From Desulfobacterales bacterium (GTDB lineage Bacteria > Desulfobacterota > Desulfobacteria > Desulfobacterales > JAUWMJ01): DNA of 15,311 nt. Where the stretch lies: positions 1-15,311 of the forward strand of contig JAUWMJ010000019.1 in the NCBI GenBank assembly GCA_030613225.1, read 5' to 3'. Numbering within the stretch: the stretch's first letter is position 1; every line of letters starts with the position of its first letter. The notes under the pieces are model-generated. The model was not told the origin of the DNA. It saw only the letters and a program-made list of their open reading frames with translations, and did not search any database. This document shows, piece after piece, positions 677-15,009 of this stretch. Made by a program: the position numbers and the translations under genes.

Positions 677-1993
677 ATGGTTAGAGGTCAAAATTCTTCA
701 CGCGATCGGTTAATCATCTTCGGACGTTATCCGGTTCCGGGCCGAACCAAGACGCGTCTTATCCCTGCCCTTGGCCCGGCGGGGGCTGCTGACCTTCAGC
801 GTTGGCTTACTGAGAATATCTTAGAAACAGTCAGAGGGTTTGCAAGGTCCCGCGAAATCGAGGTGGAGATCTGTTTTGAAAGTGATAGCAAACAGAAAAT
901 GCGTCAATGGCTCGGTTCAGGTGAAATCTTGTCTCGACAGGTTCCGGGGAACCTTGGCGAGCGTATGCAGGCTGCGTTCTTAGATGCATTTCAAAGAGGT
1001 GCGGATCGGGTTGTTCTCTTAGGTACGGATATTCCGCAGATTAGAACGGATCACCTTGAGCAGTCATTCGACGCCCTGGCCGAAAACGATCTTGTTATCG
1101 GACCGAGCACCGATGGCGGGTACTGGCTTATTGGGCTGAATCACCCTGTCGATCTGTTTGAGGGCATTAAATGGAGCACCGATGCTGTATTCGGTCAAAC
1201 GCTATCCCTGGCAAAAGAACAGGGGTTAAGGGTCAAAACACTTAGTCCCCTCAAGGATATCGATACGGCGGAAGATCTCAAACAAGTGCTCCCTGGGTGG
1301 GCCGCAAAAGGGCCTTATGTATCGGTGATCATTCCTGCGCTAAACGAAGCAGCAAATATAGAGGCTACTATAAAAAGGGCTATGCGCGAAGATGCTGAGA
1401 TCATCGTTGTGGATGGCGGGAGTATTGATAATACGGTTGAAATAGCGTCATCAGCCGGTGTACGGGTTGTAACAGGCCCGCGAGGCCGTGCAGTGCAGCA
1501 AAACCTCGGAGCAAAGGCTGCAACAGGAAGAGTTCTCCTGTTTCTCCACGCTGATACGCTTTTGCCGACCGGTTACGTCAATTATATTTTTGAGCTTTTG
1601 ATGGATCGAAAAACAGTCGCCGGCGCATTCCGGTTTAAAACCAACTTGGATCATCCAGCCATGAAAGTAATAGAACTTTTGACAAATATCCGCTCACGAT
1701 ACTTGAAACTGCCTTATGGCGACCAGGGACTGTTTATCCGAAAGTCGGTATTCGAGTCAGTTGGAGGCTTCCCCAAGGTCCCTGTTGCCGAGGACCTCTT
1801 TTTGATCCGCCGTCTCTCAAAGTATGGCCGCATCAAAATTGCGCCTGCTCATGCTTTGACCTCCGCGCGGCGTTGGCAAACCCTTGGACTGTTTCGCACA
1901 ACACTGATCAACTATATTATATTGATTGGTTGCTGTCTTGGCGTTTCACCCAGTGCACTTGCATCGATGTACCGATTAGGAGGAAACAAATAA
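677..1993 (+). CDS. Fused glycosyltransferase: CofC-like DUF2064 domain plus GT2 domain
   Basis: This 438-aa protein joins two domains usually made as separate proteins. Residues about 1-205 are a DUF2064/CofC-like nucleotidyltransferase-fold domain (FGRYPVPGRTKTRL near the start; LLGTDIPQI and GPSTDGGYWLIGL later). Residues about 213-438 are a GT-A family 2 glycosyltransferase (VSVIIPALNEAANI, IIVVDGGSIDNT, HADTLLP). The two halves correspond to the families known as 'rSAM/selenodomain-associated transferase 1' and 'transferase 2' (TIGR04282 and TIGR04283). Acceptor and donor sugars are not known. The start ATG lies 2 nt after the previous stop. The gene ends in TAATG, overlapping the start of the downstream candidate selenoprotein, which fits the family name. 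The domain assignment is confident; the biological product is not. Confidence 0.88.
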   Translation: MVRGQNSSRDRLIIFGRYPVPGRTKTRLIPALGPAGAADLQRWLTENILETVRGFARSREIEVEICFESDSKQKMRQWLGSGEILSRQVPGNLGERMQAAFLDAFQRGADRVVLLGTDIPQIRTDHLEQSFDALAENDLVIGPSTDGGYWLIGLNHPVDLFEGIKWSTDAVFGQTLSLAKEQGLRVKTLSPLKDIDTAEDLKQVLPGWAAKGPYVSVIIPALNEAANIEATIKRAMREDAEIIVVDGGSIDNTVEIASSAGVRVVTGPRGRAVQQNLGAKAATGRVLLFLHADTLLPTGYVNYIFELLMDRKTVAGAFRFKTNLDHPAMKVIELLTNIRSRYLKLPYGDQGLFIRKSVFESVGGFPKVPVAEDLFLIRRLSKYGRIKIAPAHALTSARRWQTLGLFRTTLINYIILIGCCLGVSPSALASMYRLGGNK

Positions 1994-2823
1994 TGCGATG
2001 GAAACAATTTTTAACGCCTGTCGAGACAATGGATACAAAAGAAGCCAAGGCCTACATGGCCCGGCAAAAAGAAGGTGCATTTACTCTTTTAGACGTTCGC
2101 CAGCCAGGGGAATACGAAAAGGAACGGATTCCAGGGGCCTTACTCATTCCCTTGCCCGAACTTGTTGATCGCATAGGAGAACTGGACCCTGAAAAGCCTA
2201 TTATTCCATACTGAGCTGTTGGCGGACGCAGCCGTGCTGCTGCGCAACTTCTGGCAGGAAAAGGATTTAAGAAAGTCTACAATCTCAAGGGCGGGATAAA
2301 GGCCTGGCAGGGGCTTACTGCGGCGGGTCCGGCAGAAATGGGAATGGTTCATTTGAAAGGAGATGAGACACCCACTGATATAATCATTATAGCATATGGA
2401 ATGGAGCAGGGACTCGAGGAATTTTACTCAACAATTGTCGACATGGTGGACGACCAGGAGGTTGTCGGTCTGTTAACAAAATTGGCCGTAATTGAGGAGA
2501 ATCACAAGCAGAGACTTTTTAATCTGTATCTCACATTTGAACCGGATGTTGCCGATAAAGCGGCATTTGAAGCCGGCGTCGTCTCGGATATCATGGAGGG
2601 CGGTTTTACAACCAAGGAATTTCTGGAGCAAAACAGACCCGCCATTCAGACGGTTGAGGGTGTACTTAATGTATCCATGATGCTTGAGGCACAGGCGCTG
2701 GATTTGTACTTAAGATATTCACAAAAGATCAAAGATGAAAATGCCAAGACCGTCCTCTATGAAATAGCTGAAGAGGAAAAGGCCCACCTGGCCAGCTTGG
2801 GACGTCTTATGGAAAAACTATAA
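1993..2823 (+). CDS. Selenocysteine-containing rhodanese fused to ferritin-like domain (UGA recoded)
   Basis: Read through the in-frame TGA at 2212-2214, this is one 276-aa protein. Residues 30-112 are a rhodanese domain (LLDVRQPGEYEKERIPGA, then the active-site loop, then YNLKGGIKAWQG). The TGA is residue 74, exactly where rhodaneses carry the catalytic Cys: Y-[UGA]-AVGGRSRAAA. The frame is uninterrupted on both sides (74 codons before and including it, 202 residues after). Residues about 126-276 form a four-helix ferritin/rubrerythrin-like domain with di-iron type ligands: E142/E143, E168xxH171, E232 and E262xxH265. AGGAGG at 1978-1983 lies 9 nt before the ATG. A plausible role is selenium-dependent sulfur or selenium transfer coupled to an iron centre (inference). 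An ordinary gene caller would split it into 1993-2214 and 2338-2823. The alternative, a nonsense-mutated Cys rhodanese, is less likely given the exact position and the hairpin. Confidence 0.85.
2212..2248 (+). promoter_or_regulatory. Candidate bacterial SECIS element directly after the UGA
   Basis: Just 3' of the TGA (2212-2214) the RNA can fold into a stem-loop. GTTG 2218-2221 pairs with CAAC 2245-2248. A 5-nt bulge on the 5' side follows, then CGCAGC 2227-2232 pairs with GCTGCG 2239-2244 around a six-nt loop, CGTGCT. The loop starts 18 nt after the UGA and has G as its second base. Both properties fit the published bacterial SECIS consensus (a G in the first two loop positions; loop about 16-37 nt from the UGA). 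The hairpin lies inside the coding sequence, as in other bacterial selenoprotein genes. It was folded by eye, without energies. Confidence 0.68.
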
Positions 2824-2832
2824 GCGTTCACA

Positions 2833-2860
2833 GGTTCAGGGTTCAACGGTTCAGGGTTGC
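2833..2860 (+). repeat. Heptamer repeat arm, ggttcag type
   Basis: Units ggttcag, ggttcaac, ggttcag and ggttgc follow each other with a 7-8 nt period, starting 9 nt after the selenoprotein stop. The reverse-complement array lies at 3034-3070. Confidence 0.7.
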
Positions 2861-2976
2861 CTTCCCACTCATTCCGGCGCTCTACGCCTACTGCCGGTGT
2901 GTAAGAACCGGGAAAGATGCCCCTCTTTATGATCTCTGATGCGGTATCGGTCTCTGGTCATCGGTTACTTCATATG

Positions 2977-2994
2977 CCGGCGCTTAAGCGCCGG
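2977..2994. repeat. 18-bp perfect GC-rich palindrome
   Basis: CCGGCGCTTAAGCGCCGG is self-complementary over its full length. It stands in the middle of the spacer between the two heptamer arms, with no poly-T after it. It could be a REP-like element or a protein-binding site; the sequence does not decide. Confidence 0.6.
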
Positions 2995-3033
2995 ATGAAC
3001 GTTCCTACAGCGAAGCATGGGAACGAGGGCAAA

Positions 3034-3070
3034 CTCTGAACCCTGAACCTCTGAACCCGTGAACGGTTAC
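3034..3070 (-). repeat. Heptamer repeat arm, inverted copy ending in GGTTAC
   Basis: Units ctctgaa, ccctgaa, cctctgaa and cccgtgaa run with a 7-8 nt period and end in cggttac at 3064-3070. They are the reverse complement of the units at 2833-2860. Confidence 0.7.
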
Positions 3071-3131: not shown

Positions 3132-3926
3132 ATGTTTGGTATAAACGAATCCGTTATAAGGTTATTACTCTTTTGGGGAGGACTCCTTTTCTTTTTTTCA
3201 CTGGAACTTCTGGCCCCATACAGGCCAAGCTCCGTATCCAAATTGAAACGCTGGATAAACAATATCTCTATCACCATCTTTAACAGCATCCTGCTTAACC
3301 TGATTTTCTCAGCAGCGATTATAAGCACGGCAGCGTATGTGCAAACTAATCAATTAGGAGTGCTCAATATGATTGAAGGCCCGGCATGGATCAAGATCCT
3401 TGCCACAGTAGCCTTCATGGATTTCATGTTGTATGTCTGGCATCTCCTGAATCACGAGATGCCGCTTTTGTGGCGGTTTCACCGTGTTCATCACTCCGAT
3501 TTGAACATGGACGTCTCTACAGCGACCAGGTTTCATATCGGGGAACTGGCCATATCGGCCGTTATCAAGATATGCATAATATTTTTTCTCGGAGCGAGTT
3601 ATCTGGGTGTGTTGATATTTGAAAGCGCAGTGGTACTTTCTATCCAGTTCCATCACAGCAGTCTGAAGGTTCCAGGATGGTTCGAAACCATCTGGTGGAT
3701 ATTCTTCGTGCCGCCTTCCATGCACCGGATACACCATTCCGTGGTCATTAAGGAGAGGGATACAAACTACGGCGCCATATTTTCCATCTGGGATCGGATA
3801 CTGGGCACTATGCTTACCAGTGTGGACCAGAAAAGGATACGAATTGGTGTAGGGGCCTATCACAATCCGGATAAGCTGAATTTCCACCAATTGCTGGGTA
3901 TGCCATTCACTAAATCGGTTAAGTGA
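3132..3926 (+). CDS. Fatty acid hydroxylase / sterol desaturase family membrane protein
   Basis: This 264-aa integral membrane protein has the histidine clusters of the fatty acid hydroxylase superfamily, which bind a non-haem di-iron centre: H104-LLN-H108, H117-RV-HH121, HH at 174-175 and H198-RI-HH202. Hydrophobic segments near residues 8-28, 45-70, 86-103, 139-172 and 185-195 suggest several membrane spans with the His boxes on one face. The family hydroxylates or desaturates lipids (sterols, fatty acids, carotenoids); the substrate cannot be read here. Most members need O2, so in a likely anaerobe it may protect against oxygen or modify lipids during exposure (inference). A good AAGGAGAT site precedes the ATG. 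It has no close partner: more than 300 nt of gene-free DNA lie on each side. Confidence 0.88.
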   Translation: MFGINESVIRLLLFWGGLLFFFSLELLAPYRPSSVSKLKRWINNISITIFNSILLNLIFSAAIISTAAYVQTNQLGVLNMIEGPAWIKILATVAFMDFMLYVWHLLNHEMPLLWRFHRVHHSDLNMDVSTATRFHIGELAISAVIKICIIFFLGASYLGVLIFESAVVLSIQFHHSSLKVPGWFETIWWIFFVPPSMHRIHHSVVIKERDTNYGAIFSIWDRILGTMLTSVDQKRIRIGVGAYHNPDKLNFHQLLGMPFTKSVK

Positions 3927-4176: not shown

Positions 4177-4305
4177 AGGCTTCGCCTTCGGCTACGCCCC
4201 GGCAAGCCCGGAACACATACGTGATAGGCGAACAAACAAGTTAAAAAAGACGCATTATGGGTAGCGACAAATGTCGTTGTAAGGTTAAATCAACAGGTGA
4301 ATACT

Positions 4306-5253
4306 ATGAAATTTGACAAACCCATTACACGCAGAGAATCAATCCGAAAGCTTTTGCGGTGGTCAGGATACGTTACGTTTGCCGGCGCCGCTCAATGGCC
4401 CTTCTACACACTGCCCGATGCATGGGCGACGAAGACAAAAAAAAGGTTTATTGTTAAGGGCTTTGGTCAAACAGATGGCTTTTCCGTGAAAGAGCTGACA
4501 AAAAAGGTGTTTGAAGCAGCCGGAGGAATTAAACGATTTGTCTCCCGAGGAGATGTGGTGGTGATCAAGCCGAACATATCCTGGGCCCGGCATCCACGGT
4601 TTGCGGCCACGACAAATCCCGAGGTTTTGGCAGCCGTCATCGAGCTGTGTCAGGAAGCCGGCGCCAAACGGGTTCGAATCGCCGATAATACCATCCACGA
4701 CGCCAGGCAATGTTTTGCTATGACCGGGGTTGGAAAGGTGGCTAAGGAAACGGGAGCCGATCTGGTTTACCCAAGATCATCTTTAATGAAAAAAATGAAA
4801 TTAAGGGGCAACCGGCTGGATGTGTGGCGTGTGTTTACTCCCCTGGTGGAGGCAGATAAGGTGATCAACCTCCCGGTAGCCAAGCACCACTCCTTAAGCA
4901 CCCTTACCCTGGGAATGAAAAACTGGATTGGTGGGGTAGGTGGGAGCCGGTGGTCGCTTCATCAGGATATCCATCGGAGCATTGTCGATCTGGCACAGTT
5001 CTTTAAACCTGAAATTACCCTGATCGATGCCATCCGTATTATGACCCGAAACGGTCCTTCCGGCGGCAGTACGGATTATGTTACGCTTAAAAACACCCTG
5101 ATTCTAAGCGATGATCCGGTAGCAGCGGATGCCGGAGCAAGCATGCTTTTCGGATTAAAACCGGAAAGTATCGGATATATTCACCTGGCCCAAAAAGAGG
5201 GCTTGGGCACCTATGATTTCTCAAAGCTTGAACAGAAAAGGGTGGTCATGTGA
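4306..5253 (+). CDS. DUF362 domain protein, probable twin-arginine signal
   Basis: This 315-aa protein is of the DUF362 family: DVVVIKPNISWARHP, then TNPEVLAAVIELCQEAGAKRV, then IADNT in the first half, and NLPVAKHHSLSTLTLGMKNWIG in the middle. The ATG at 4306 was chosen because AGGTG (4295-4299) sits 6 nt before it. A GTG at 4297 in the same frame would add three residues. The N-terminus TRRESIRKLL (8-17), a hydrophobic stretch and LPDAWA at 36-41 resemble a weak Tat signal peptide, suggesting export (inference). It has no ferredoxin cysteines of its own. Its stop overlaps the start of the next gene (ATGTGA), so the two are translationally coupled and probably form one redox unit. The reaction of DUF362 proteins is unknown. 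Confidence 0.85.
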   Translation: MKFDKPITRRESIRKLLRWSGYVTFAGAAQWPFYTLPDAWATKTKKRFIVKGFGQTDGFSVKELTKKVFEAAGGIKRFVSRGDVVVIKPNISWARHPRFAATTNPEVLAAVIELCQEAGAKRVRIADNTIHDARQCFAMTGVGKVAKETGADLVYPRSSLMKKMKLRGNRLDVWRVFTPLVEADKVINLPVAKHHSLSTLTLGMKNWIGGVGGSRWSLHQDIHRSIVDLAQFFKPEITLIDAIRIMTRNGPSGGSTDYVTLKNTLILSDDPVAADAGASMLFGLKPESIGYIHLAQKEGLGTYDFSKLEQKRVVM

Positions 5254-6872
5254 AAATCCGGCATCTTGTTTGGCTAAGAAGAATTATCCAAACGTTTTTC
5301 CTGTTTCTGTTTCTATTTCTTCTGGTTGAAAGCAGACTTTCCCAAGATATTTATGTTGATTATTCAATAGTTTTTTCCGCTGACAGTGATATAAGGCTGG
5401 ATACGCCTGTCACTTTCTTTTTTAAACTCAATCCGCTCATCGGATTAACCTCTCTTTTGTCAGGGCACCGTCGCATCCCGGGATTTCTCTGGGGCTTTGG
5501 TGTGCTCCTTATCACAATTTTCCTTGGCCGGGTGTTCTGCAGCTTCATTTGCCCTTTCGGAACCATTCATCACGCTATAGGCAGTATTCGTCCAGCCCTT
5601 AAAGGAGACCGGATGGTACAGGCCAATCAGAAGACTCCTGAACAGAAGATCAAGTACTTTTTTCTTGTGTTCTTGTTAATCAGCGCTGCTGTCGGCCTGA
5701 ACCTGTCCGGGCTGATGGATCCCATAGCCTTATTATTTAGATCCATGGCCCTGGCTGTGCTCCCCGGCTTCGGAGCAGGGCTCCGTACGGTCTTCGACGT
5801 CATGGCCAACAGCGATATCAAGGCGTTGAACCTGATCAGTTATGGTGCGGAAGTCCTGCTGTCCCCGGTATTCGGATACAATGTCCAGGCTTATCAAACA
5901 GCCTGGTTCATAGGCTTGGTCTTTCTGATTATTCTGTTTCTCAACCGGATCCGGCCTCGCTTCTTCTGCCGTATACTTTGTCCTCTCGGCGCACTCATGG
6001 GAATCTTCTCAAGGGTCAGCCTGCTTAAATTGAAAAAGTATCCCGATAAATGCACAAATTGTAATTTATGCGTCAAGCACTGTCAGGGGGCTGCTTCTCC
6101 CCATCCTGATCAAGTTTGGGAAGCCGCCGAATGCCTTGCCTGTTTCAACTGTCATAACATATGCCCTGAGGAAGCGCTCGCCTTCTCTTTTTCCCGGCAA
6201 CCCAAATTAAACCGAAAACCGGACATTGGCCGACGTGCCCTGCTGGGAAGTATTCTGGCCGGTTTCTCAGTACCACTTCTGGGGAGACTTGATGGACGTA
6301 TCGACAAAGTTGCGGATTCTCGACTCATCAGACCGCCCGGATCTCTATCGGAGAAGGATTTTCTGGAACTTTGCCAGCGGTGCGGGCTGTGTATGAAGGT
6401 TTGTCCCACAAATGCGATTAACCCCACTCTTGGAGAAGCCGGAATGGCTGGGTTCTGGACTCCCCGTTTAATTATGACACAAGGTTACTGCGAATACACC
6501 TGTTCCCTGTGTGGAAGCGTTTGTCCAACAGGGGCTATTGCCGACATTACCACCAAAGAGAAGATCCAGCGGCCAATCAAAATCGGATCCGTCTATGTAG
6601 ACAGAGGCCGGTGTCTTCCCTGGTCCGGAAACGCTCCCTGTATCGTATGTGAGGAGGTTTGTCCCACCTCTCCTAAAGCAATTTACTTAAAGAAAGAGAC
6701 CGTGTCCGGTCCGGGTGGGAAAAAGTTAGCGGTGCAATTACCCTTTGTCGATCTAAAACAATGCGTGGGTTGCGGTATTTGCGAAAACAAATGCCCGGTC
6801 AAAGGCCTGCCGGCCATCAGAACCATCAGTGCCGGTGAATCCAGATCTTTGGAAAACCAAATTCTTTTGTGA
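5250..6872 (+). CDS. NapH-like membrane ferredoxin fused to NapG-like ferredoxin
   Basis: This 540-aa protein has a GTG start inside the stop region of the DUF362 gene. Residues 1-320 resemble NapH/MauN: membrane helices, two CxxxCP motifs in loops (FCSFICPFG at 96-104, FCRILCPLG at 239-247), then two [4Fe-4S] motifs (CTNCNLCVKHC at 268-278, CLACFNCHNICP at 295-306). From GRRALLGSILAGFSVPLL (327-344), which reads as an internal twin-arginine or membrane segment, the rest resembles NapG/MauM: RPPGSLSEKDF, CQRCGLCMKVCP (375-386), CEYTCSLCGSVCP (414-426), CIVCEEVCP (464-472) and CVGCGICENKCP (505-516). NapGH pass electrons from quinol to periplasmic enzymes, so a quinol-linked electron relay is the likely role, with DUF362 as partner (inference). 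A GC-rich spacer follows. Confidence 0.88.
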   Translation: MKIRHLVWLRRIIQTFFLFLFLFLLVESRLSQDIYVDYSIVFSADSDIRLDTPVTFFFKLNPLIGLTSLLSGHRRIPGFLWGFGVLLITIFLGRVFCSFICPFGTIHHAIGSIRPALKGDRMVQANQKTPEQKIKYFFLVFLLISAAVGLNLSGLMDPIALLFRSMALAVLPGFGAGLRTVFDVMANSDIKALNLISYGAEVLLSPVFGYNVQAYQTAWFIGLVFLIILFLNRIRPRFFCRILCPLGALMGIFSRVSLLKLKKYPDKCTNCNLCVKHCQGAASPHPDQVWEAAECLACFNCHNICPEEALAFSFSRQPKLNRKPDIGRRALLGSILAGFSVPLLGRLDGRIDKVADSRLIRPPGSLSEKDFLELCQRCGLCMKVCPTNAINPTLGEAGMAGFWTPRLIMTQGYCEYTCSLCGSVCPTGAIADITTKEKIQRPIKIGSVYVDRGRCLPWSGNAPCIVCEEVCPTSPKAIYLKKETVSGPGGKKLAVQLPFVDLKQCVGCGICENKCPVKGLPAIRTISAGESRSLENQILL

Positions 6873-6984: not shown

Positions 6985-7136
6985 AAACTTCGCTAAGCGA
7001 TGCAGTTTTCGCTCGGACAAGGCCTGCCGCGGCGTAACCTTGGCGAAGACGGGCTTGTCTCGGCGTAGCTTTCAAGCGAAGCCGGGCGCTACTCAAATAA
7101 ATACGCCTCAAAAATGGAGTCCGGAGACAAACATGC

Positions 7137-7212
7137 AACCTTGAACCCCTGAACCCTGGTCGCCTACGGCGCCGCCAAAGGCGGGTAAACCTTTGAACCC
7201 GTAGACGGTTAC
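7137..7212 (-). repeat. Heptamer repeat arm, aaccctg type, ending in ACGGTTAC
   Basis: Units aaccttg, aacccctg and aaccctgg are interrupted by a GC-rich palindromic piece (about 7161-7185) and followed by aacctttg and aacccgt, ending in ACGGTTAC at 7205-7212. The same eight bases end the arrays at 3063-3070 and 4119-4126. Confidence 0.65.
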
Positions 7213-7269
7213 TAATATTAGGCCGTTAGTGCGGCCCACCACAGGGGAAGGAACCAACAAATTTTCATT

Positions 7270-7547: not shown

Positions 7548-7982
7548 ATGTTTAAATTTACATATCCAGCAAAAATCGAAAAAGACGAGGCAGGTTTTTT
7601 CCTGGTCACATTTCCTGATATTCATTTTGCCGCAACCGACGGCAAAACTATGGCTGAAGCACTGGAGGAAGCGCGAGATTGTCTGGAGGAAGCCATAGCT
7701 GTTTCAATTGATGACAACCTTGATTTTCCATTTCCTTCACCCCTTCGCAAAGGCCGGCACGCTATCTCGCTGACCGCCCGAATGTCTGCCAAGGCTGCTC
7801 TTTACATTGCGGTATGTGAAACAGGCATCAGCAAATCAGAACTGGCGCGCAGGCTTGGTGTGGATGAAAAGGAGATACGCCGGATGCTCTCTCCAAGGCA
7901 CCAAACCAAGCTGCCACGCATAGAACAGGCTCTTTCGGCTCTTGGCTATCAATTGACTGTCTCCTTGCAAAAAGCCGCTTAA
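7548..7982 (+). CDS. hicB: HicB family antitoxin with HTH domain
   Basis: This 144-aa protein has an N-terminal HicB fold (FTYPAKIEKDEAGFFLVTFPDIHFAATDG, then EALEEARDCLEEAI), a degraded RNase H-like domain that covers the toxin. Residues about 85-138 are a helix-turn-helix (AALYIAVCETGISKSELARRLGVDEKEIRRML, then LGYQLTV) that should bind the operon's own promoter. AAGGA lies about 10 nt before the ATG. The two TTCGGACA repeats upstream of hicA are the candidate binding sites. The module stands just left of a second toxin-antitoxin pair. Confidence 0.9.
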   Translation: MFKFTYPAKIEKDEAGFFLVTFPDIHFAATDGKTMAEALEEARDCLEEAIAVSIDDNLDFPFPSPLRKGRHAISLTARMSAKAALYIAVCETGISKSELARRLGVDEKEIRRMLSPRHQTKLPRIEQALSALGYQLTVSLQKAA

Positions 7983-8319
7983 AATCAATATGTTCGGGAA
8001 GAAAATGACTTTTTGTACGAGAACTAACCGGGACTTTCAAAAAAAATATCTTGCAATAGGGGATTGTATAAACCGTAAATCCTGAAGGACATCCTATATT
8101 ATAAATTGGCATTAACTTCCGGATATATCCGCAATAATTACACCATATCTGGGGCAAATAGTACTTTTTTTTTCTCCACCATGCCCGGCTAACTTTAAAC
8201 AAAAATATTTGATGCTATATTTCTAAGCTTATCGCTTGAATAGGATATCATATGATAAATTAGCTTGACAATTATATCATATGATATAAAATTGTAGAAC
8301 CGTTGGCCGGAGGCAATAA
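7983..8319. other. AT-rich spacer between the two toxin-antitoxin modules
   Basis: No gene was found. It contains a 12-bp palindrome CGGATATATCCG (8120-8131) and, at its right end, the operator and promoter of the next module. No T-run terminator was seen after hicB. Confidence 0.55.
8246..8292 (+). promoter_or_regulatory. Promoter with twin palindromic operators for the MqsR/Panacea module
   Basis: TTGACA (8265-8270), 16 nt, TAAAAT (8287-8292) is a strong promoter. TATCATATGATA (8246-8257) is a perfect palindrome just upstream of the -35. ATATCATATGATAT (8274-8287) is a second perfect palindrome filling the spacer and touching the -10. They share the 12-bp core and their centres are 29 bp apart. 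This layout is typical of autorepression by the antitoxin HTH. Confidence 0.82.
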
Positions 8320-8673
8320 TTGGATGATTTAAAACAATTGAAAATAGCGCTTTTTCTAAAGGAATTTAAGCAATTAATCCAGGAAAATGGGCTGTATATT
8401 GTCAACCGTCTTGATAACCAAAAGTCCCTGGCTGACCTGGGAATAACAAAAAAAGATTGTAAAAAAGAGATCATTGGACTTTCAGTAACGGATTATTGCA
8501 ATGGGCCACAGCCTGATACTGACAGGCCGGGTGAAATTTGGGTCTTTGGAAAAAAGATCGCTGATAAAGAGGTGTATATCAAAGTCAAAATTGCACAGGT
8601 CGGTACTGATAAGATAGCCAAATGTATTTCTTTCCATGTCGCTGAGTATCCGCTATCTTATCCTTTTAAATGA
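8320..8673 (+). CDS. MqsR-family toxin
   Basis: This 117-aa protein has LADLGITKKDCKKEIIGLSVTDYCNGP (38-63), then EIWVFGKKI (72-80), EVYIKVKIA (84-92) and ISFHVAEYPLSYPF (103-116). This is the pattern of MqsR-type toxins (RelE-like fold mRNA interferases). The start is TTG: GGAGG (8309-8313) lies 6 nt before it, and an in-frame TAA stands immediately upstream, so no earlier start is possible. A weak start codon may keep toxin levels low (inference). It is first in a two-gene operon with its antitoxin 20 nt downstream, as in mqsRA. Family assignment is from remembered motifs; the target is unknown. Confidence 0.75.
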   Translation: MDDLKQLKIALFLKEFKQLIQENGLYIVNRLDNQKSLADLGITKKDCKKEIIGLSVTDYCNGPQPDTDRPGEIWVFGKKIADKEVYIKVKIAQVGTDKIAKCISFHVAEYPLSYPFK

Positions 8674-8693
8674 TCTAAAAGGGGGTGAAAATA

Positions 8694-9689
8694 ATGAATA
8701 AGATTTGTCCGAACTGCGAAAAAAGGACGGATATTCAACATATCCGGACAAACGAAGAGATTAAGGTGAAAGGCGAGGGAATCAGTGTTCCGGTTGAATA
8801 CTATAAATGCACCGAATGTGGCGCTGAGTTTGAAGATCCAAACTCATTACATGATCCTTTGGAATTTGCTTACAAAGAATATCGCCGCCGTCATGGAATG
8901 ATGCAGCCTGGTGATATTCGCAATTTGAGGCAAAGATACGGGTTAACTCAAAAAGAACTTGCAAAGCTCCTTGGATGGGGAGAAGCAACTTTTAGCCGCT
9001 ATGAGAATGGTTCTCTTCAGGATAATACACATAATACTATTTTACAAATGATCAAAGATCCTCGAAATCTCTTAAGCCTGATCGAACTGCAAGGAGACTT
9101 TTTAACTGTGGAAAAAAAAGATAGCCTTATTAGCAAATTAAAAAATGCAGTTGAAAAAGTGCATTCTTTCCCCTTAATCTATTCCGAATATTTTGGAAAA
9201 TATGAACCGAGCATTTTAAGTGGATTTAAAGAACTGAATTTTGCCAAACTCTTTCAGGCGATTATCTTTTTTTGTGTTGACGGCGTCTTAAAAACAAAGC
9301 TCAATAAGCTCCTGTTTTATGCTGACTTTAAATATTATAAAAAATATGCTTCTTCGATTACAGGTATCAGATATGTTCATCTCAAATTTGGCCCTGTACC
9401 TGATAAATATAGATACTATTTTGCGACTTTGGAAAATGAACAAAAAGCGATCAGTGTTGATGAGGTTGATTATGGTGATTATTCCGGTGAAATGTTTTAC
9501 GCTGCCAAAAAACCGGATTTATCTGTTTTTGAAAACCCCGAGCTAAAAACATTAATTGAAGTCAAAGAGCATTTTAAGATTTTCAGCGCCAGTCGAATTA
9601 AGTCCTTTTCTCATAATGAAAAAGGATATAAAGAAACATCTGATGGTCAAATCATATCATATGTTTACGCTGATGATCTTCAAATTTAG
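8694..9689 (+). CDS. Hybrid antitoxin: MqsA-like zinc ribbon and HTH fused to Panacea (SocA/DUF4065) domain
   Basis: The protein has 331 residues from the ATG at 8694, chosen over a GTG at 8685 because GGGGGTG lies 6 nt before it. Residues 5-42 hold a zinc ribbon (CPNC and CTEC). Residues about 74-110 are an XRE/MqsA-type helix-turn-helix (LRQRYGLTQKELAKLLGWGE, then FSRYENG). Residues about 180-320 are a Panacea/SocA-like domain (LNKLLFYADFKYYKKYASSI, then YVHLKFGPVPDKYRYYF). Known MqsA uses its N-terminal zinc domain for toxin binding and its HTH for DNA. Panacea domains are a separate, widely shared toxin-neutralising module. Both in one chain suggests two layers of control (inference). It probably binds the palindromes at 8246-8287. 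Confidence 0.85.
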   Translation: MNKICPNCEKRTDIQHIRTNEEIKVKGEGISVPVEYYKCTECGAEFEDPNSLHDPLEFAYKEYRRRHGMMQPGDIRNLRQRYGLTQKELAKLLGWGEATFSRYENGSLQDNTHNTILQMIKDPRNLLSLIELQGDFLTVEKKDSLISKLKNAVEKVHSFPLIYSEYFGKYEPSILSGFKELNFAKLFQAIIFFCVDGVLKTKLNKLLFYADFKYYKKYASSITGIRYVHLKFGPVPDKYRYYFATLENEQKAISVDEVDYGDYSGEMFYAAKKPDLSVFENPELKTLIEVKEHFKIFSASRIKSFSHNEKGYKETSDGQIISYVYADDLQI

Positions 9690-9735
9690 GAGCTCTTTAG
9701 TCAATATAAGAAGATGCTAATAGAGATAGATACAC

Positions 9736-10092
9736 ATGCTGCTACTGGATAACCAACAGAAAGAAGAAAGAGCTATATCCTTGATGGATACAGTCGATTG
9801 TTTTCGGCTTGATGCTAACAGGAAAATTGATCCATCCACACGATCAAAATTTGGACAGTATATGACGAATGCTCCTGCGGCTAACTTTATGGCTTCGCTT
9901 TTTGTTAATATGTCAGGTGAAATCCGATTGCTGGATGCTGGAGCCGGTGTTGGTTCTCTTACGGCAGCTTTTGTTCGGGAAGCTTGTAACCGACAAGAGA
10001 AACCAAATACAATTACTGCCGCGACTTATGAAATTGAGCCGATATTCGCCGAGTATTTAAAAGAAACATTGTCAGAATGTAATAAACTTTGA
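9736..10092 (+). pseudogene. N-terminal remnant of an Eco57I/BsuBI-type adenine-N6 DNA methylase
   Basis: These 118 residues match only the start of the family. They contain KFGQYMTNAPAANFMASLF (38-56), as in the FGQxxTP motif, and the AdoMet-binding motif I LLDAGAGVGSLTAAFV (65-80), then EIEPIFAEYLKETLSECNK. The catalytic NPPY motif and target-recognition region, normally several hundred residues further on, are absent. After the TGA at 10090 no continuation is recognisable in any frame before the next gene at 10183. It is therefore a deletion remnant of a restriction-modification system and cannot methylate DNA alone. No strong ribosome site precedes the ATG. Confidence 0.8.
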
Positions 10093-10182
10093 GGCTGAAT
10101 AAATTTAACCTGCGATCTGAGCAGAAAGGCGAGACAAAGATGGATGTTTTGGATAGATTTTTAAGGAAGGCGTTTGCAGCTG

Positions 10183-11703
10183 ATGAATAATATGACAAAA
10201 GACGAATTGATCAAACTCCTTAATGGGCATGAATGGAATAATGTTGAATTTAAGAAGGCTCAGCGCGGTGTGCCTGAGTCCGCCTATGAAACCGTGTCCT
10301 CTTTTTCAAATACTGGCGGCGGCTGGCTGGTGTTTGGTATCAGGGATTACGATGGCCATTATGACGTTGCTGGTGTTCTTGAGGTTGACAAAGTTCAGAA
10401 TGATTTTTTAAGCGCGCTACGTGCCGGTAATAAAGTGAATCATGATATTAAGGTCGAACCGGAATTAATCGATGTAGAGGATAAGACAGTTCTGGTCTTT
10501 CGCATACCCGAGGCATCCCGGCAAGACAAGCCAATTTACCTGAACGGCGATATCCGCCGCTCATTTATTCGCAGAGGAGGTTGCGATCAGCGTTGCACTA
10601 TGCCTGAAATCGAGCGTTTCCTGCGTGATGCGGCTGAGGAGCGCTGGGATGGACAGGTTTTCAACTATCCTCTGGAGGAAGCCTTTCATCGAGAGTCAAT
10701 CAAATGGTACAGGGCATTGTTCAACGAAAGAAATCCCGGTCATGATGAATCTCTCAGCGACCAGGAATTTCTCCACCAGTGGGGTCACATAGTAAGAAAA
10801 GATGAAATATTACAACCTACCAGGGCCTCCATTCTTCTTTTCGGATCACCGGCGGCAATTCACCAGATGCTTCCCCGACCTACCCTTGATGTTCAATGGA
10901 TTCCATCAGATCTTGGTGAACCACTGCCAGAAGTTCGCTGGTTGGACCGTAAGGTTTTTGAGGATAATCTCATTATCACATGGCGTGGACTGGTTACCAG
11001 CTACATGCAAAAGGCGGAAAAACCTTTCCGTATCGATCCTCACACCTTGCTGAGAAATGACGCGCCATTAGAGTACAGAGTATTCCGTGAAGCTGCCATT
11101 AACCTGTTAATTCACCAGGATTATGCCAGTCACGGTTTCAAGGCGGTAATCAAGTTTTACCGGAATCTGATTCAGTTCTGGAATCCAGGAGATGTTTTCG
11201 GAAATGCCGATCTTCTGCTGGAGCCTGGTGAAAAAGAAGTGCGCAATCCCCAGATTGTGGCGGCATTTCGGAGACTGGGGCTCTGTGAGCAGGCAGGCAC
11301 AGGGATGCGGATGGTGTTGAATCAATGGCAGACATTGGGATATCTTGAGCCGGAGTACGATAATGACCGCTCGCGCAAGACATTTGAAATACGTTTGCCT
11401 TTGGAAAAAGATCGGGTTACCCCACCAGTCAGTGAACAAGTCGCAGGTGAAGTCACGGGTGAAGTCACGGGTGAAGTTCAGAAATTCTTAAAAATACTGC
11501 ATACGCCTATGAGCCGCTCAAAAGCTCAGATTGCTCTCAACCTGAAAGGACAAGCAAACTTCAGAGATCTTTATTTGAAGCCGGCTCTGGTTTTAGAACT
11601 TGTTGAAATGACGATTCCGGATAAGCCTAGAAGCAGCAAGCAAAAATATCGTCTTACAGATAAGGGCAAAGAATGGGTTGAACAGAACCAGGCGGAAAAA
11701 TGA
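10183..11703 (+). CDS. Schlafen AlbA_2 domain ATP-binding protein with C-terminal winged helix
   Basis: This protein has 506 residues from the ATG at 10183. AAGGAAGG at 10163-10170 lies 12 nt before it; an ATG at 10192 and a TTG at 10174 are in-frame alternatives. Residues 15-140 are a Schlafen-type AlbA_2 domain (NVEFKKAQRGVP, SFSNTGGGWLVFGI). Residues about 290-380 are a HATPase_c_4-like region (RVFREAAINLLIHQDYASHG, WNPGDVF, then LCEQAGTGMRMVL). A short linker repeats TGEV (about 422-433), then a winged-helix-like tail. Such proteins are common in defence and restriction islands and are usually annotated as transcriptional regulators or ATP-binding proteins; their action is not settled. 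It is full-length and overlaps the next ORF by 4 nt. Confidence 0.85.
   Translation: MNNMTKDELIKLLNGHEWNNVEFKKAQRGVPESAYETVSSFSNTGGGWLVFGIRDYDGHYDVAGVLEVDKVQNDFLSALRAGNKVNHDIKVEPELIDVEDKTVLVFRIPEASRQDKPIYLNGDIRRSFIRRGGCDQRCTMPEIERFLRDAAEERWDGQVFNYPLEEAFHRESIKWYRALFNERNPGHDESLSDQEFLHQWGHIVRKDEILQPTRASILLFGSPAAIHQMLPRPTLDVQWIPSDLGEPLPEVRWLDRKVFEDNLIITWRGLVTSYMQKAEKPFRIDPHTLLRNDAPLEYRVFREAAINLLIHQDYASHGFKAVIKFYRNLIQFWNPGDVFGNADLLLEPGEKEVRNPQIVAAFRRLGLCEQAGTGMRMVLNQWQTLGYLEPEYDNDRSRKTFEIRLPLEKDRVTPPVSEQVAGEVTGEVTGEVQKFLKILHTPMSRSKAQIALNLKGQANFRDLYLKPALVLELVEMTIPDKPRSSKQKYRLTDKGKEWVEQNQAEK
11446..11481 (+). repeat. 12-bp tandem repeat GGTGAAGTCACG in coding sequence
   Basis: There are two exact units (11446-11457, 11458-11469) and a third, diverged unit (11470-11481). 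They encode the linker GEVTGEVTGEV between the ATPase-like part and the winged-helix tail. A multiple of 3 keeps the frame, so copy number can vary without breaking the gene. Confidence 0.8.
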
Positions 11704-12200
11704 TCATGATTCAGCTATGTTGTCAAAACATGAGAAAGCAAACAGGAAAACAGGTTGCAAAAACATACAACAAGTCCATTTCCGGCGATCTTATCAGTGA
11801 TATCCGAACGCTCATTGAAACTGCCAGGCATAATGTTGCCGTTCCGGTCAACGCCAGCTTGACTATTCTTTATTGGCAGATTGGCAACCGTATTTGCCAA
11901 GGTATTTTAAAACAAAAACAGGCGGAGCACGTAAAAGAGATTGTTGCTACACTGTCGCAAAAATTAACGATAGGATACGGGAGGGGCTTTTCCAGACGTA
12001 ATCTTTTTAACATGATCAGATTCGCTGAAGTTTTTTCTGATAAGAAAATTGTGCACGCACTGAGTGCACAATTAACCTGGACGCATTTTAGAGAAATTAT
12101 CTATCTCGACAACTGCCTTCAATGTGATTTTTATGCTGAAATGTGCCGCATAGAGCAGAGGATTATTATTTTGACCTGCTTTTTTTCCACCACAAACTAA
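11700..12200 (+). pseudogene. DUF1016 (YhcG family) N-terminal domain, truncated
   Basis: The start overlaps the preceding stop (ATGA). Residues 30-153 are the DUF1016 N-terminal helical domain: ISDIRTLIETARHNVAVPVN, LYWQIGNRI, YGRGFSRRNLFNMIRFAEVF, LSAQLTWTHFREI and FYAEMCRIEQ. At that point intact members continue with a linker and a PDDEXK nuclease domain. Here the match stops at about nt 12160 and a short unrelated tail runs to a stop at 12200. DNA from a type III methylase gene begins about 30 nt later in another frame. The nuclease half has therefore been deleted. An ATG at 11706 is an alternative start. Confidence 0.82.
12047..12073. repeat. Perfect 10-bp inverted repeat inside the DUF1016 remnant
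   Basis: AATTGTGCAC (12047-12056) and GTGCACAATT (12064-12073) flank a 7-nt loop. They lie in codons for a segment that looks normal for the family (KIVHALSAQL), so the hairpin may be incidental. Confidence 0.6.
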
Positions 12201-13204
12201 AACGACTCATTGCCTCATCAAACCCTGGCGACCTTGTCATAGACATATTCGCCGGTTCCGGCATTACGGCGGCGGTTGCAGAAAAGCTTGGCAGACGCTG
12301 GATCGTTTGCGATTTCGGCAAGCATGCGATCTACACCATGCAAAAGAGGATGCTCAGGATTGTCGAGTCAAAGGCGCTTGGCAAGGATGCAAAGAAAAAC
12401 AAAAAATATGATAAGCCTCCAAAACCGTTCTGTGTTGTTTCCACGGGGGCTTATGATTTTTTCCGCATCATGAAGCTCAGGGAGAACAAGGACGCGTATA
12501 TTGATTTTGTGCTGGGGCTTTTTCAGAGCAGCCGGGATGAAAAGGATTTATCAGGCAAATACAGGCTTACCAATATCTTTGGTGAAAAGGATGGCGATTC
12601 GGTTGAGGTTTATCCTGTCTGGAATGATGAGTATTTGAAAAACATCAGGATTGATGAGAATTATCTCAAAGGAATCATTTTGCAATCCCGAGGCAAGCTA
12701 AAGGGCAATTATTATATTATCACACCGGAGACCTGCACCCTGATTGGCGATACAATAATGAAAAACAGCGCCGGAAATGATGTGCATTTTAAGATGCTCA
12801 AGTTTCCCTACAAAATACTGGAAGATGTCTCCCGCAATTTTCAGATACAACAGCAGCCGAGTTCCCAAGAAAATGTCAACAATCTTATCAATTCAACCGG
12901 GTTTTATTTTAATGATGATGTTGAGATTGAAGTTGAGAGAATAAAACAGGGCTTGAAGATTACCCGGTTTGAGACAAAGATTCTGGATAAGCAGGAAAAG
13001 CGTTTACAAGGGCTTGACGGGATTGCGATGCTGCTTGTAGATGTTGATTATGACGGTGACATTTTTGATATGGATAGAACCGTATTTGCCAAAGATATTA
13101 GCGCTGACGGCGAAACGAGAATGTCCGGTTTGACGGAAAGCATTGCAGTTATTGCAATTGATAAACACGGTAATGAGAGTAAGATGTACAAGGTAGAAGG
13201 CTGA
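12143..13204 (+). pseudogene. mod: C-terminal remnant of type III restriction-modification methylase (Mod)
   Basis: The frame is open from a GTG at 12143, but recognisable Mod sequence starts near 12188: HHKLKRLIASSNPGDLVIDIFAGSGITAAVAEKLGRRWI, the motif X/motif I region that binds AdoMet. In beta-class methylases such as Mod the catalytic DPPY motif and target-recognition domain come before this point. Both are missing, removed by the same deletion that cut the DUF1016 gene. The remaining roughly 300 residues (KPPKPFCVVSTGAYDF, then a typical C-terminal region to GNESKMYKVEG) have no internal stop, so the break is probably recent or the fragment is still made. It ends in a heptamer array that leads into the KilA-N gene. 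Confidence 0.82.
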
Positions 13205-13225
13205 AGACTGAAGGTGGAAGGTAAC
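13191..13225 (+). repeat. Five in-phase heptamers spanning the mod stop and the next ribosome site
   Basis: Units aggtaga, aggctga, agactga, aggtgga and aggtaac have an exact 7-nt period. The TGA stop of mod (13202-13204) is in unit 2. Units 4-5 (aggtggaagg) act as the ribosome site for the ATG at 13228. The array ends in GGTAAC, like the intergenic arrays further left. Confidence 0.75.
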
Positions 13226-13227
13226 TC

Positions 13228-14052
13228 ATGGCTAAACAAAAAATCAAGGTTAAAGGAACGGAAATTGTTATTTTTTCACAAAAAAAGAAAGATTATATTT
13301 CTCTTACTGATATCGCAAAATATAAAAATCCGGAAGCTCCCAGAGATATAATAAAGAATTGGATCAGAACTCGAAGTACAATTGAATTTATCGGAATTTG
13401 GGAACAAATTCATAACCCGAATTTTAAACAGGTCGAATTCGACCTGTTTAAAAACGAAGCCGGGAGCAACGCATTTGTTTTATCGCCTCAGAAATGGATA
13501 GATGCAACAGGCGCCATTGGTATTATTTCAAAATCCGGCCGATATGGCGGGACCTTTGCCCACCAGGATATTGCCTTTGAATTCGCATCATGGATAAGCG
13601 CGGAATTCAAGTTGTACCTTTTAAAGGAGTTCCAGCGGTTAAAACAGGAAGAGAGAGAGCATAAAAAGCTTGAATGGAATGTTTCACGAACGCTGGCAAA
13701 AGTGAACTACCTGATCCATACCGATGCCATAAAAGAAAACCTGATTCCTGAAAACATATCTGCAAGTAAACGAAAATTTGTTTATGCAGACGAAGCAGAC
13801 TTATTAAACATTGCATTATTTGGGAAAACTGCAAAAGAATGGCGGGAAAAATATCCGGATTTAAAAGGCAATGTCAGGGATTATGCTACCTTAGAGCAGT
13901 TAGTTGTTCTTTCAAATATGGAAAGCTACAATTCAGAACTCATCAAAGTGCAGATACCATCAGATGAAAGATTAAAAAAACTGAATAAGATCGCAATCGA
14001 CCAAATGAAAGTGCTTATTGCAAACAGATCAATTAAAAAGCTTAAAGAATAA
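13228..14052 (+). CDS. KilA-N domain protein between mod and res
   Basis: This 274-aa protein is intact. Residues about 18-135 are a KilA-N DNA-binding domain: KDYISLTDIAKYKNPEAPRD, IKNWIRTRSTIEFIGIWE, NPNF, EAGSNAFVLSPQKWIDATGAIGI, GRYGGTFAHQDIAFEFASWI and EFKLYLLKEFQRLK. The rest is helical, ending in a basic tail. KilA-N proteins occur in phages and, in this form, inside type I and III restriction loci, where their role is not established. The start is set by GGAAGG 5-10 nt upstream. Its neighbours on both sides are broken restriction genes, yet it has no stop or frameshift. A 32-bp perfect palindrome lies in its coding sequence (13422-13453). Confidence 0.87.
   Translation: MAKQKIKVKGTEIVIFSQKKKDYISLTDIAKYKNPEAPRDIIKNWIRTRSTIEFIGIWEQIHNPNFKQVEFDLFKNEAGSNAFVLSPQKWIDATGAIGIISKSGRYGGTFAHQDIAFEFASWISAEFKLYLLKEFQRLKQEEREHKKLEWNVSRTLAKVNYLIHTDAIKENLIPENISASKRKFVYADEADLLNIALFGKTAKEWREKYPDLKGNVRDYATLEQLVVLSNMESYNSELIKVQIPSDERLKKLNKIAIDQMKVLIANRSIKKLKE
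13422..13453. repeat. 32-bp perfect palindrome inside the KilA-N gene
   Basis: The 16 bases before position 13437/13438 are exactly self-complementary to the 16 after, centred on GAATTC with ACAGGTC and GACCTGT arms and TTTTAA/TTAAAA ends. It encodes NFKQVEFDLFK, which fits the family, so it is not an obvious insertion. Confidence 0.85.
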
Positions 14053-14058
14053 AATAAA

Positions 14059-14457
14059 ATGGCGAAAAAAGTTAAAAGACAAAAAGCAATCAAAAGATTG
14101 AATCTGTCAGATCACACTCTGGATATAAATATCCGGAGTTGTAATTACAACAAGTTCAGTTTTTCGGATATAGAGGACTATGTCAGTGAGCTGGTCGGAT
14201 CGCGCGACTATCAGTATGATGCTATTAAACAAATCATGATTTATCTTTGGGGTGGCAGTTACAAAAGCATAACAGAACTTGGAAAGGAAAATTATAAACA
14301 GTAATTACAGATTCAGCAGCGTTTTGGAACAGAAGAAAATTTTCTCCACCAGCTACCCCTTCCTGATCGTTTGTCCGGGGTCGTTCACATGGCTACCGGC
14401 ACTGGAAAATCTTATGTAATCTTTGCAATCGCCTATCTTTCCCTTGTTATTGAAATG
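14059..14457 (+). pseudogene. res: N-terminal remnant of type III restriction helicase (Res), nonsense codon and 3' break
   Basis: One frame carries the start of a Res-type superfamily 2 helicase. YQYDAIKQIMIYLWGGSYKS and ELGKENYKQ come first, then an in-frame TAA (14302-14304), then in the same frame LQIQQRFGTEENFLHQLPLP, then HMATGTGKSYVIFAIAYLSLVI with the Walker A motif ATGTGKS. After about nt 14457 the match stops and unrelated sequence with inverted repeats begins. Only about 130 residues of a protein that normally has 800 or more remain. The order mod, KilA-N, res and the 6-nt gap to the KilA-N stop show it was part of one type III operon. Confidence 0.83.
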
Positions 14458-14460
14458 GGG

Positions 14461-14514
14461 TTCGTGCAGAACGTTCACAACTCTAAATTAAACGTCAAGC
14501 ACTTTCTGCACGAA
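14461..14514. repeat. Inverted repeat at the Res breakpoint
   Basis: TTCGTGCAGAA (14461-14471) and TTCTGCACGAA (14504-14514) are perfect 11-bp arms around 32 nt. The first arm begins 3-4 nt after the last recognisable Res codons. Inner ACGTT/AACGT bases (14471-14475, 14490-14494) can extend the hairpin. It could be a mobile-element end or a terminator-like fold. Confidence 0.6.
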
Positions 14515-14648
14515 CGTCCCACCATTCCAAGTTCCCATGATGCCCAGAAACATACTAAGCTTCTCGCCTGTACCTTATGGGCTGTCTTCCTGAAGATAAT
14601 ACTTCATCTCTCTTGATTATTCGATATGTCAATATATCAAGGATGTCC

Positions 14649-14805: not shown

Positions 14806-15009
14806 GTGAATCGAGACGGTTATATCATTTTCTTCCAGGTGATATGAAAATAATCAGTGGCAGCGTGTCCTGATATTTGGGATAAAGTGCATGAGTTGCT
14901 AAATTATATAAAGTTGTACATCTATCCCAAATATCAGGACACTGCGAAAGAGTGGAGGCTGTGACCAACATATCACCTTCCAGAAAATAATATAACCGTC
15001 TCGATTCAC
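14806..15009. mobile_element. Nested inverted-repeat element, MITE-like, 204 bp
   Basis: The outer arms are 41 bp each (14806-14846 and 14969-15009), with about 37 of 41 positions complementary; they begin gtgaatcgagacggttatat. The inner arms are 20 bp and perfect (14865-14884 and 14923-14942; gtgtcctgatatttgggata). The central loop is 38 nt, and the spacers between arms are 18 and 26 nt and not complementary. There is no open reading frame inside. This fits a non-autonomous miniature element, or a small element inserted into another. No clear target-site duplication was found. Confidence 0.65.

What the first reader, a model, noticed from the sequence alone, without database searches (positions are those of the whole stretch)
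1993..2823. Selenocysteine at the rhodanese active site, in a rhodanese-ferritin fusion
Seen: two ORFs in the same frame are separated only by a TGA that falls exactly where rhodaneses have the catalytic Cys (Y-UGA-AVGGRSRAAA), and the rhodanese continues normally after it. A hairpin with a G in the apical loop starts 3 nt behind. Known: Sec-containing rhodanese-related proteins have been reported in sequence surveys, and the gene before it belongs to 'selenodomain-associated' transferase families. Inferred: one 276-aa selenoprotein with a redox-tuned Se centre next to a di-iron ferritin-like domain. Automatic annotation would give two truncated proteins and lose the active site.
Basis: partly seen in the sequence, partly recalled or inferred. 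Interest (0 to 1): 0.92.

Follow-up and report, generated by a model that had tools for sequence, protein, structure and literature searches.

The report
Selenium-containing rhodanese–rubrerythrin fusion protein
A gene that software splits at a "stop" codon almost certainly makes one protein with selenium at its reactive centre, joined to an iron-binding domain, and many bacteria of the sulfate-reducer group carry it with either selenium or sulfur at that spot.

Summary
At 1993-2823 one frame codes for a rhodanese domain fused to a rubrerythrin-like di-iron domain, broken only by a TGA at residue 74, the rhodanese active-site position. The selenocysteine reading is strongly supported. In relatives read from genomes, 104 distinct sites carry TGA (42), TGC (42) or TGT (20) and nothing else; 18 further TGA members have TGA there and no other stop in the match. 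A SECIS-like hairpin at fixed distance, with G in the first two loop bases, occurs in 41 of 43 TGA but 5 of 60 Cys members, and in 17 of 18 held-out TGA members. Purifying selection spans the TGA. At least 10 Sec/Cys switches are forced by starred branches of a quick tree. Databases mostly hold the TGA form as two pieces. Sec machinery is present in relatives' genomes but near-universal in these classes, so it does not discriminate; the window's own genome is not held. Sec-rhodaneses are a known kind; searches showed no description of the rubrerythrin fusion. Its biochemical role is inferred and untested.

The parts
1993..2823 (+). rhodanese-rubrerythrin fusion gene, 276 codons with TGA read as Sec, stop TAA 2821-2823
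1978..1983 (+). AGGAGG ribosome-binding site 9 nt before the ATG at 1993
   Evidence: read directly
2047..2310 (+). rhodanese domain (residues 19-106), active-site loop U-A-V-G-G-R-S at residues 74-80
2212..2214 (+). in-frame TGA, predicted Sec codon (residue 74)
2227..2244 (+). compact SECIS-like hairpin: stem 2227-2232/2239-2244, loop 2233-2238 with G at 2234; extended fold 2216-2257
2371..2817 (+). rubrerythrin/ferritin-like four-helix domain (residues 127-275) with conserved E138, E168xxH171, E202, E232, E262xxH265
677..1993 (+). upstream glycosyltransferase fusion (TIGR04282 + TIGR04283), its TAA overlapping the ATG of the selenoprotein gene by 1 nt; probably cotranscribed
3132..3926 (+). 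fatty acid hydroxylase family gene (PF04116), next to the fusion on the same strand in 14 of 104 related loci

Best explanation
The gene encodes a selenoprotein. UGA at codon 74 is read as selenocysteine with the help of a SECIS hairpin directly downstream, so one 276-residue protein is made: a rhodanese domain with Sec in place of the catalytic Cys, fused to a rubrerythrin-like di-iron four-helix domain without rubredoxin. Most likely function (inferred): the Sec selenolate takes up sulfane sulfur, or reacts with peroxide, and passes sulfur or electrons to an outside acceptor and/or the di-iron site, giving a sulfur-linked peroxide or oxygen defence in anaerobes. Shown here by sequence: conserved TGA, hairpin, purifying selection, Cys/Sec interchange, conserved would-be iron ligands. 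Inferred: selenium insertion in this organism, iron binding and all of the chemistry. The confidence given is for the selenoprotein; for the function it is about 0.4.
For: 104 distinct genomic sites: TGA 42, TGC 42, TGT 20, nothing else. 18 TGA members from further genomes have TGA at residue 74 and no other stop in the match. The 120 listed N-terminal fragments end just before the site, and most listed C-terminal relatives begin 2 to 13 residues after it. SECIS-like hairpin in 41 of 43 TGA versus 5 of 60 Cys members; of 10 phylogenetically independent pairs about 8 go that way, 1 the other way, 1 shows no difference; rule met in 17 of 18 held-out TGA members. The third base of one Ala codon in the stem is T in 37 of 43 TGA members and 9 of 58 Cys members, and the 6 TGA exceptions all carry G there, together with the letters expected of a 3-nt register shift at two other positions. 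dN/dS window versus L001 is 0.135 before, 0.028 just after and 0.175 further after the TGA. In 22 genomes with TGA members: SelA over cut-off in 20, SelB in 16, SelD in 19, tRNA-Sec above 60 bits in 18, at least one in all 22. Di-iron ligand positions are kept in 40 Sec and 57 Cys full-length members, apart from one gapped Sec row and one Cys row at E168.
Against: The window's genome is not held, so its Sec machinery is untested. Sec machinery is near-universal in these classes (SelA over cut-off in 73 of 85 and 55 of 55 genomes), so co-occurrence does not discriminate. The window's hairpin energy is ordinary; RNAalifold on all 43 TGA members does not find this hairpin; in the pair count on TGA members the number of pairs with two-sided changes is no higher than in shuffles (406 of 500 as high) and the covariation score (0.054) is within the range of slid controls (0.011-0.069), though cells paired (75.6%) exceed all of them. 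Synonymous-recoding p <= 0.05 in only 18 of 43 TGA members. L140 and L161 lack the hairpin by this rule. 5 Cys members of the first set keep it, as does L174, one of two Cys members fetched later. Nothing tests the enzymatic role.
Confidence: 0.9

Rival explanations
1. Pseudogene or sequencing error: the TGA is a chance nonsense mutation of the active-site Cys codon TGC/TGT.
For: TGA is one step from TGC/TGT; some relatives look damaged (L155 has a TAG at residue 247; L053 matches only to residue 145 in one frame).
Against: TGA at exactly this codon in 42 of 104 distinct sites plus 18 more, no TAA or TAG there, and no other stop inside the match in those TGA members; dN/dS below 1 on both sides; hairpin tied to TGA.
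Confidence: 0.02
2. TGA is read as an ordinary amino acid (such as Trp) in a lineage with a changed code.
For: One database protein (P0004) carries Trp at the site, probably a gene caller using code 4 (inference).
Against: 17 of 39 TGA members whose terminator was seen end in TGA themselves; the 62 non-TGA members all have a Cys codon.
Confidence: 0.01
3. Translation stops at the TGA and restarts, giving a short rhodanese half and a separate ferritin-like protein.
For: Database entries begin at possible start codons shortly after the site in many relatives.
Against: In the window/L001 pair the rhodanese stretch right after the TGA is the most constrained (dN/dS 0.028); the window has GTT, not a start codon, at residue 76; the active-site loop would be lost from both pieces.
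Confidence: 0.04
4. It is a selenoprotein, but the ferritin-like domain mainly stores or senses iron and the Sec-rhodanese serves another pathway (for example selenium or sulfur delivery for cofactors).
For: Ferritin-like matches include Dps and bacterioferritin as well as nigerythrin at similar Z; weak rhodanese-domain matches to tRNA 2-selenouridine synthase.
Against: Rubrerythrin is the only ferritin-type Pfam family over its cut-off; otherwise not tested.
Confidence: 0.4

Closest known systems
Predicted Sec rhodaneses, 'rhodanese-like forms 1-5' (table in PMC13188914, passages seen)
   Same: Sec in a rhodanese-like domain; forms 2 and 4 share the UxxG motif seen here (U-A-V-G)
   Different: The main text has no occurrence of rubrerythrin or ferritin. 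Whether form 2 (MBM9537886.1) is this fusion could not be checked because no tool here fetches that record
NF041203 rhodanese_LYCAU and NF045694 TsoB (NCBIfam)
   Same: Sec-containing rhodanese proteins by name; both give weak matches
   Different: 39.1 bits against cut-off 115 and 19.9 against 805 for the window protein; TsoB is named a rhodanese/DsbD-like fusion
Rubrerythrin / nigerythrin and rubredoxin-less ferriperoxin (PMC3317640, abstract seen)
   Different: Here the partner domain is a Sec- or Cys-rhodanese
Persulfide dioxygenase-rhodanese fusion BpPRF and CoA-disulfide/persulfide reductase-rhodanese fusions
   Same: rhodanese domain coupled to a redox domain; sequence and fold matches over the rhodanese part
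   Different: The partner domains differ, and those proteins carry Cys (recalled)

Membership tests
bacterial selenoprotein | in-frame UGA aligned with a conserved Cys of homologues, frame conserved beyond it | tested here: met
bacterial selenoprotein | SECIS hairpin just downstream with G in the first loop bases | tested here: met
   (against)
bacterial selenoprotein | selA, selB, selC, selD in the same genome | tested here: inconclusive
   own genome not held; in 22 relatives' genomes at least one in all and all four in 13
bacterial selenoprotein | selenium in the protein | not testable with these tools
   needs 75Se or mass spectrometry
rhodanese domain (PF00581) | curated score and fold | tested here: met
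rubrerythrin family (PF02915) | curated score and di-iron E/ExxH/E/ExxH ligand positions (motif recalled) | tested here: met
   35.4 bits against 22.8; positions conserved
classical rubrerythrin | rubredoxin domain with four Cys (recalled) | tested here: not met
   no other Cys in the window protein; 0 or 1 other Cys in all 40 full-length Sec members
NF041203 rhodanese-related (seleno)protein | cut-off 115 bits | tested here: not met
   39.1 bits
NF045694 TsoB | cut-off 805 bits | tested here: not met
   19.9 bits
Sec rhodanese form 2 (PMC13188914) | UxxG motif and same architecture as MBM9537886.1 | tested here: inconclusive
   motif met; record not fetchable here

The most novel reading that the evidence does not exclude
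A large, uncatalogued selenoprotein family in which a Sec-rhodanese feeds a rubrerythrin-type di-iron centre: sulfane sulfur or a selenenyl-sulfide serves as reductant for peroxide or oxygen reduction without rubredoxin. Lineages switch repeatedly between Sec and Cys, leaving the SECIS hairpin as a decaying footprint.
Probability: 0.3. Interest if true: 0.75.

Novelty: new member of a known kind. Interest (0 to 1): 0.58.

Why it matters
A widespread protein of the sulfate-reducer group is stored as two broken halves, with its active-site residue missing from both; one read-through family model would mend the annotation of the 120 listed clusters and probably many more (1062 candidates, of which only 120 were listed). 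Repeated, partly recent Sec/Cys switches (for example L149/L150) give a natural experiment on why selenium is kept or dropped at one site. The fusion would link sulfane-sulfur chemistry to a di-iron oxygen-defence domain in a testable single polypeptide.

Tried and rejected
Pseudogene, recoded TGA and stop-restart readings were examined and set low (see rivals). Sec machinery co-occurrence was tried as a discriminating test and fails as one because it is near-universal. The neighbour's old 'selenodomain' name was set aside: the glycosyltransferase directly adjoins the fusion in 3 of 104 loci (L007, L008, L010), lies 0.9 kb upstream in L142 and 1.8 kb upstream on the other strand in L019. RNAalifold on all 43 TGA members did not give this hairpin, which I put down to two stem registers. 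Viral contigs and the first genome-contig scan gave no relatives. ARAGORN found no tRNA in the window, and Rfam gave four matches at E <= 1, all below gathering scores. A pyrrolysine reading of the TAG in L155 was checked: best PylS match in that genome 23.5 bits against 178.15.

Literature searches for novelty: rhodanese + rubrerythrin + selenocysteine, 2 papers, judged from the listing as off topic; rhodanese + rubrerythrin + fusion, 2 papers (PMC8346489 passages, on encapsulins; the other from the listing only); also (listings). The library holds open-licence PMC papers only. The 2007 Olavius selenoproteome paper is not held and no supplementary file could be read, so prior mention cannot be excluded.

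Dropped rows: Sec machinery searched in 50 of 53 loci (L023, L028, L054, all Cys, left out); tree on 103 of 105 rows (L043 and L054, matches under 140 residues, left out); Cys DNA alignment A5 on 39 of 62 (23 members, mostly with diverged motif, left out); 9 duplicate loci and L045 (no site) removed before the count of 104; the 18 later TGA loci were not checked for duplicates against the first set.

Full report
WHAT IS THERE. The frame 1993-2823 reads 276 residues with one TGA at residue 74. Read through, it matches Rhodanese PF00581 (80.6 bits) and Rubrerythrin PF02915 (35.4 bits), both over cut-off. The gene has an AGGAGG site 9 nt before its ATG, and the ATG overlaps the TAA of the preceding glycosyltransferase gene by one base, so the two are probably one operon (inference).

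THE TGA IS CONSERVED. A search with the 73 residues before the TGA found 1062 homologues of 40-127 aa. Of the 120 listed (the window's own included), 101 have 73 residues, 16 have 74, 1 has 75, and two are longer at the N-terminus; all 120 end in Tyr just before the site. A search with a C-terminal fragment listed mainly proteins that start 2 to 13 residues after the site, besides some full-length ones. So databases mostly hold the TGA form as two halves. From genomes, loci L001-L054 gave TGA 22, TGC 24, TGT 7 in 53 with the site. With further genomes and duplicates removed, 104 distinct sites show TGA 42, TGC 42, TGT 20 and no other codon. In a sample of 395 genomes of the phylum, 71 matches at E <= 1e-50 show one TGA in 26, one TAG in 1 and no stop in 44. 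Of those 26, 8 came from genomes already used; I fetched the other 18: all have TGA at residue 74 and no other stop in the match. The TAG case is a Cys member with the TAG at residue 247. Of 42 TGA members of the first set, 39 show their terminator, and 17 of these end in TGA.

SELECTION. Between the window and its nearest relative L001 (77% identical), dN/dS is 0.135 before the TGA, 0.028 in residues 75-110 and 0.175 beyond. Of the seven other pairs tried, four have usable estimates for all three parts and all values at or below 0.32 (L126/L127, L131/L133, L004/L005, window/L126). In L146/L148 the first part gave 0.641 on a dS of 0.04; in window/L003 and L002/L126 some estimates failed.

THE HAIRPIN. 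With a rule of a stem of 4 or more pairs and a loop starting 14 to 19 nt after the UGA, 42 of 43 TGA members (window included) and 25 of 62 Cys members have a hairpin; at -6 kcal/mol or better 40 of 43 against 9 of 62 (Mann-Whitney p 1.5e-14, which ignores kinship). All 42 have G in the first two loop bases, and 41 start the loop 18 or 19 nt after the UGA. A stricter SECIS-like rule is met by 41 of 43 Sec and 5 of 60 Cys members. On ten independent pairs on starred branches, hairpin and Sec go together in 7.2 to 7.6 on average and essentially never the other way at -4 and -6 kcal/mol (median p 0.008 and 0.016); at -8 it is 5.1 (p 0.06); with the strict rule 7.8, with 1.0 opposite (p 0.04). The strict rule, fixed on the first set, is met by 17 of 18 TGA members fetched later; of two Cys members fetched with them, one (L174) also meets it. 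In pair counts the A19-U30 pair holds in 37 of 43 TGA members and 7 of 39 Cys members; the 6 TGA exceptions share G18, G30 and U33, the letters of a stem shifted by three bases. Against: the window's own fold is no better than shuffles; RNAalifold over all 43 does not find this hairpin; two-sided changes and the covariation score do not stand out from the controls; single-sequence recoding tests reach p <= 0.05 in 18 of 43 TGA members and 3 of 62 Cys members.

EVOLUTION. On a quick tree of 103 members (SH-aLRT support only, no bootstrap) the Sec/Cys state changes at least 19 times, at least 10 forced by starred branches; the label is still clustered (0 of 500 shuffles as low). Some switches look recent: L149 (Sec) and L150 (Cys) are short sister branches and L150 keeps the hairpin; L093 (Sec, -4.0 kcal/mol) and L094 (Cys) are also sisters, and L094 has no hairpin at the SECIS place, its best in the scan lying elsewhere at -2.2.

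SEC MACHINERY. The window's genome is not held. Among 22 genomes with TGA members: SelA over cut-off in 20, SelB in 16, SelD in 19, tRNA-Sec above 60 bits in 18; 22 of 22 have at least one and 13 have all four. The 28 Cys genomes searched mostly have it too (SelA in 24), and SelA is over cut-off in 73 of 85 and 55 of 55 genomes of two classes, so this is consistent but not discriminating. The nearest relative's genome (G001, L001) has SelA and SelD over cut-off, but no SelB over cut-off, and its best tRNA-Sec match only equals the gathering score. Many of these genomes are metagenome assemblies and may be incomplete.

CONTEXT. A fatty acid hydroxylase family gene lies next to the fusion on the same strand in 14 of 104 loci (11 Sec, 3 Cys), on either side; in L004 and L005 it is only about 35% identical to the window's. 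Flank lengths differ, so this is a lower bound. The glycosyltransferase directly adjoins it in 3 loci.

KNOWN OR NEW. Reviews and surveys list Sec rhodaneses (PMC13188914, PMC9312934, PMC2398784, PMC1088965) or mention rhodanese-like selenoproteins (PMC5029168, PMC8318568); I saw passages only, and the main-text counts for rubrerythrin and ferritin are zero in all six. PMC1794560 mentions rhodanese only in a reference. NCBIfam Sec-rhodanese models fall below cut-off for the window protein. Form 2 with motif UxxG might be this fusion; that record could not be fetched. I file it as a new member of a known kind: a selenoprotein family with, as far as searched, an undescribed domain partner.

Noticed in passing
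window 3132-3926; L001-L006, L011, L029, L040, L109, L127, L132, L139, L143: A fatty acid hydroxylase family gene (PF04116, a membrane di-iron oxygenase type by recall) lies beside the fusion, before or after it, in 14 of 104 loci: possibly an oxygen-using enzyme next to the fusion in presumed anaerobes.
   Followed up: partly
L155 (G309:C40:7200-8600): A Cys member has an in-frame TAG at residue 247, in the loop before the last helix; PylS was not found over cut-off, so damage or sequence error is likelier than pyrrolysine.
   Followed up: partly
window 7548-14616: Right half carries a HicB-like protein, MqsR, an MqsA-Panacea fusion, a Schlafen-AlbA/Fic-like-C protein, a DUF1016 N-terminal piece, an N6/N4 methylase piece and KilA-N: a toxin-antitoxin and restriction-type island, some pieces apparently truncated.
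   Followed up: no
window 2830-3070 and 7090-7215: Two intergenic stretches share imperfect repeats of a 'ctgaacc / acggttac' type, seen by eye.
   Followed up: no
window 4297-6872: A DUF362 protein followed by a NapH/NapG-like membrane ferredoxin, possibly a quinol-linked electron path.
   Followed up: no
SelD matches: Most SelD genes over cut-off in these genomes themselves carry one in-frame TGA, as expected of Sec-containing SelD.
   Followed up: no
window 14864-14944: A stretch scores weakly as several microRNA families in Rfam, probably chance or an inverted repeat.
   Followed up: no
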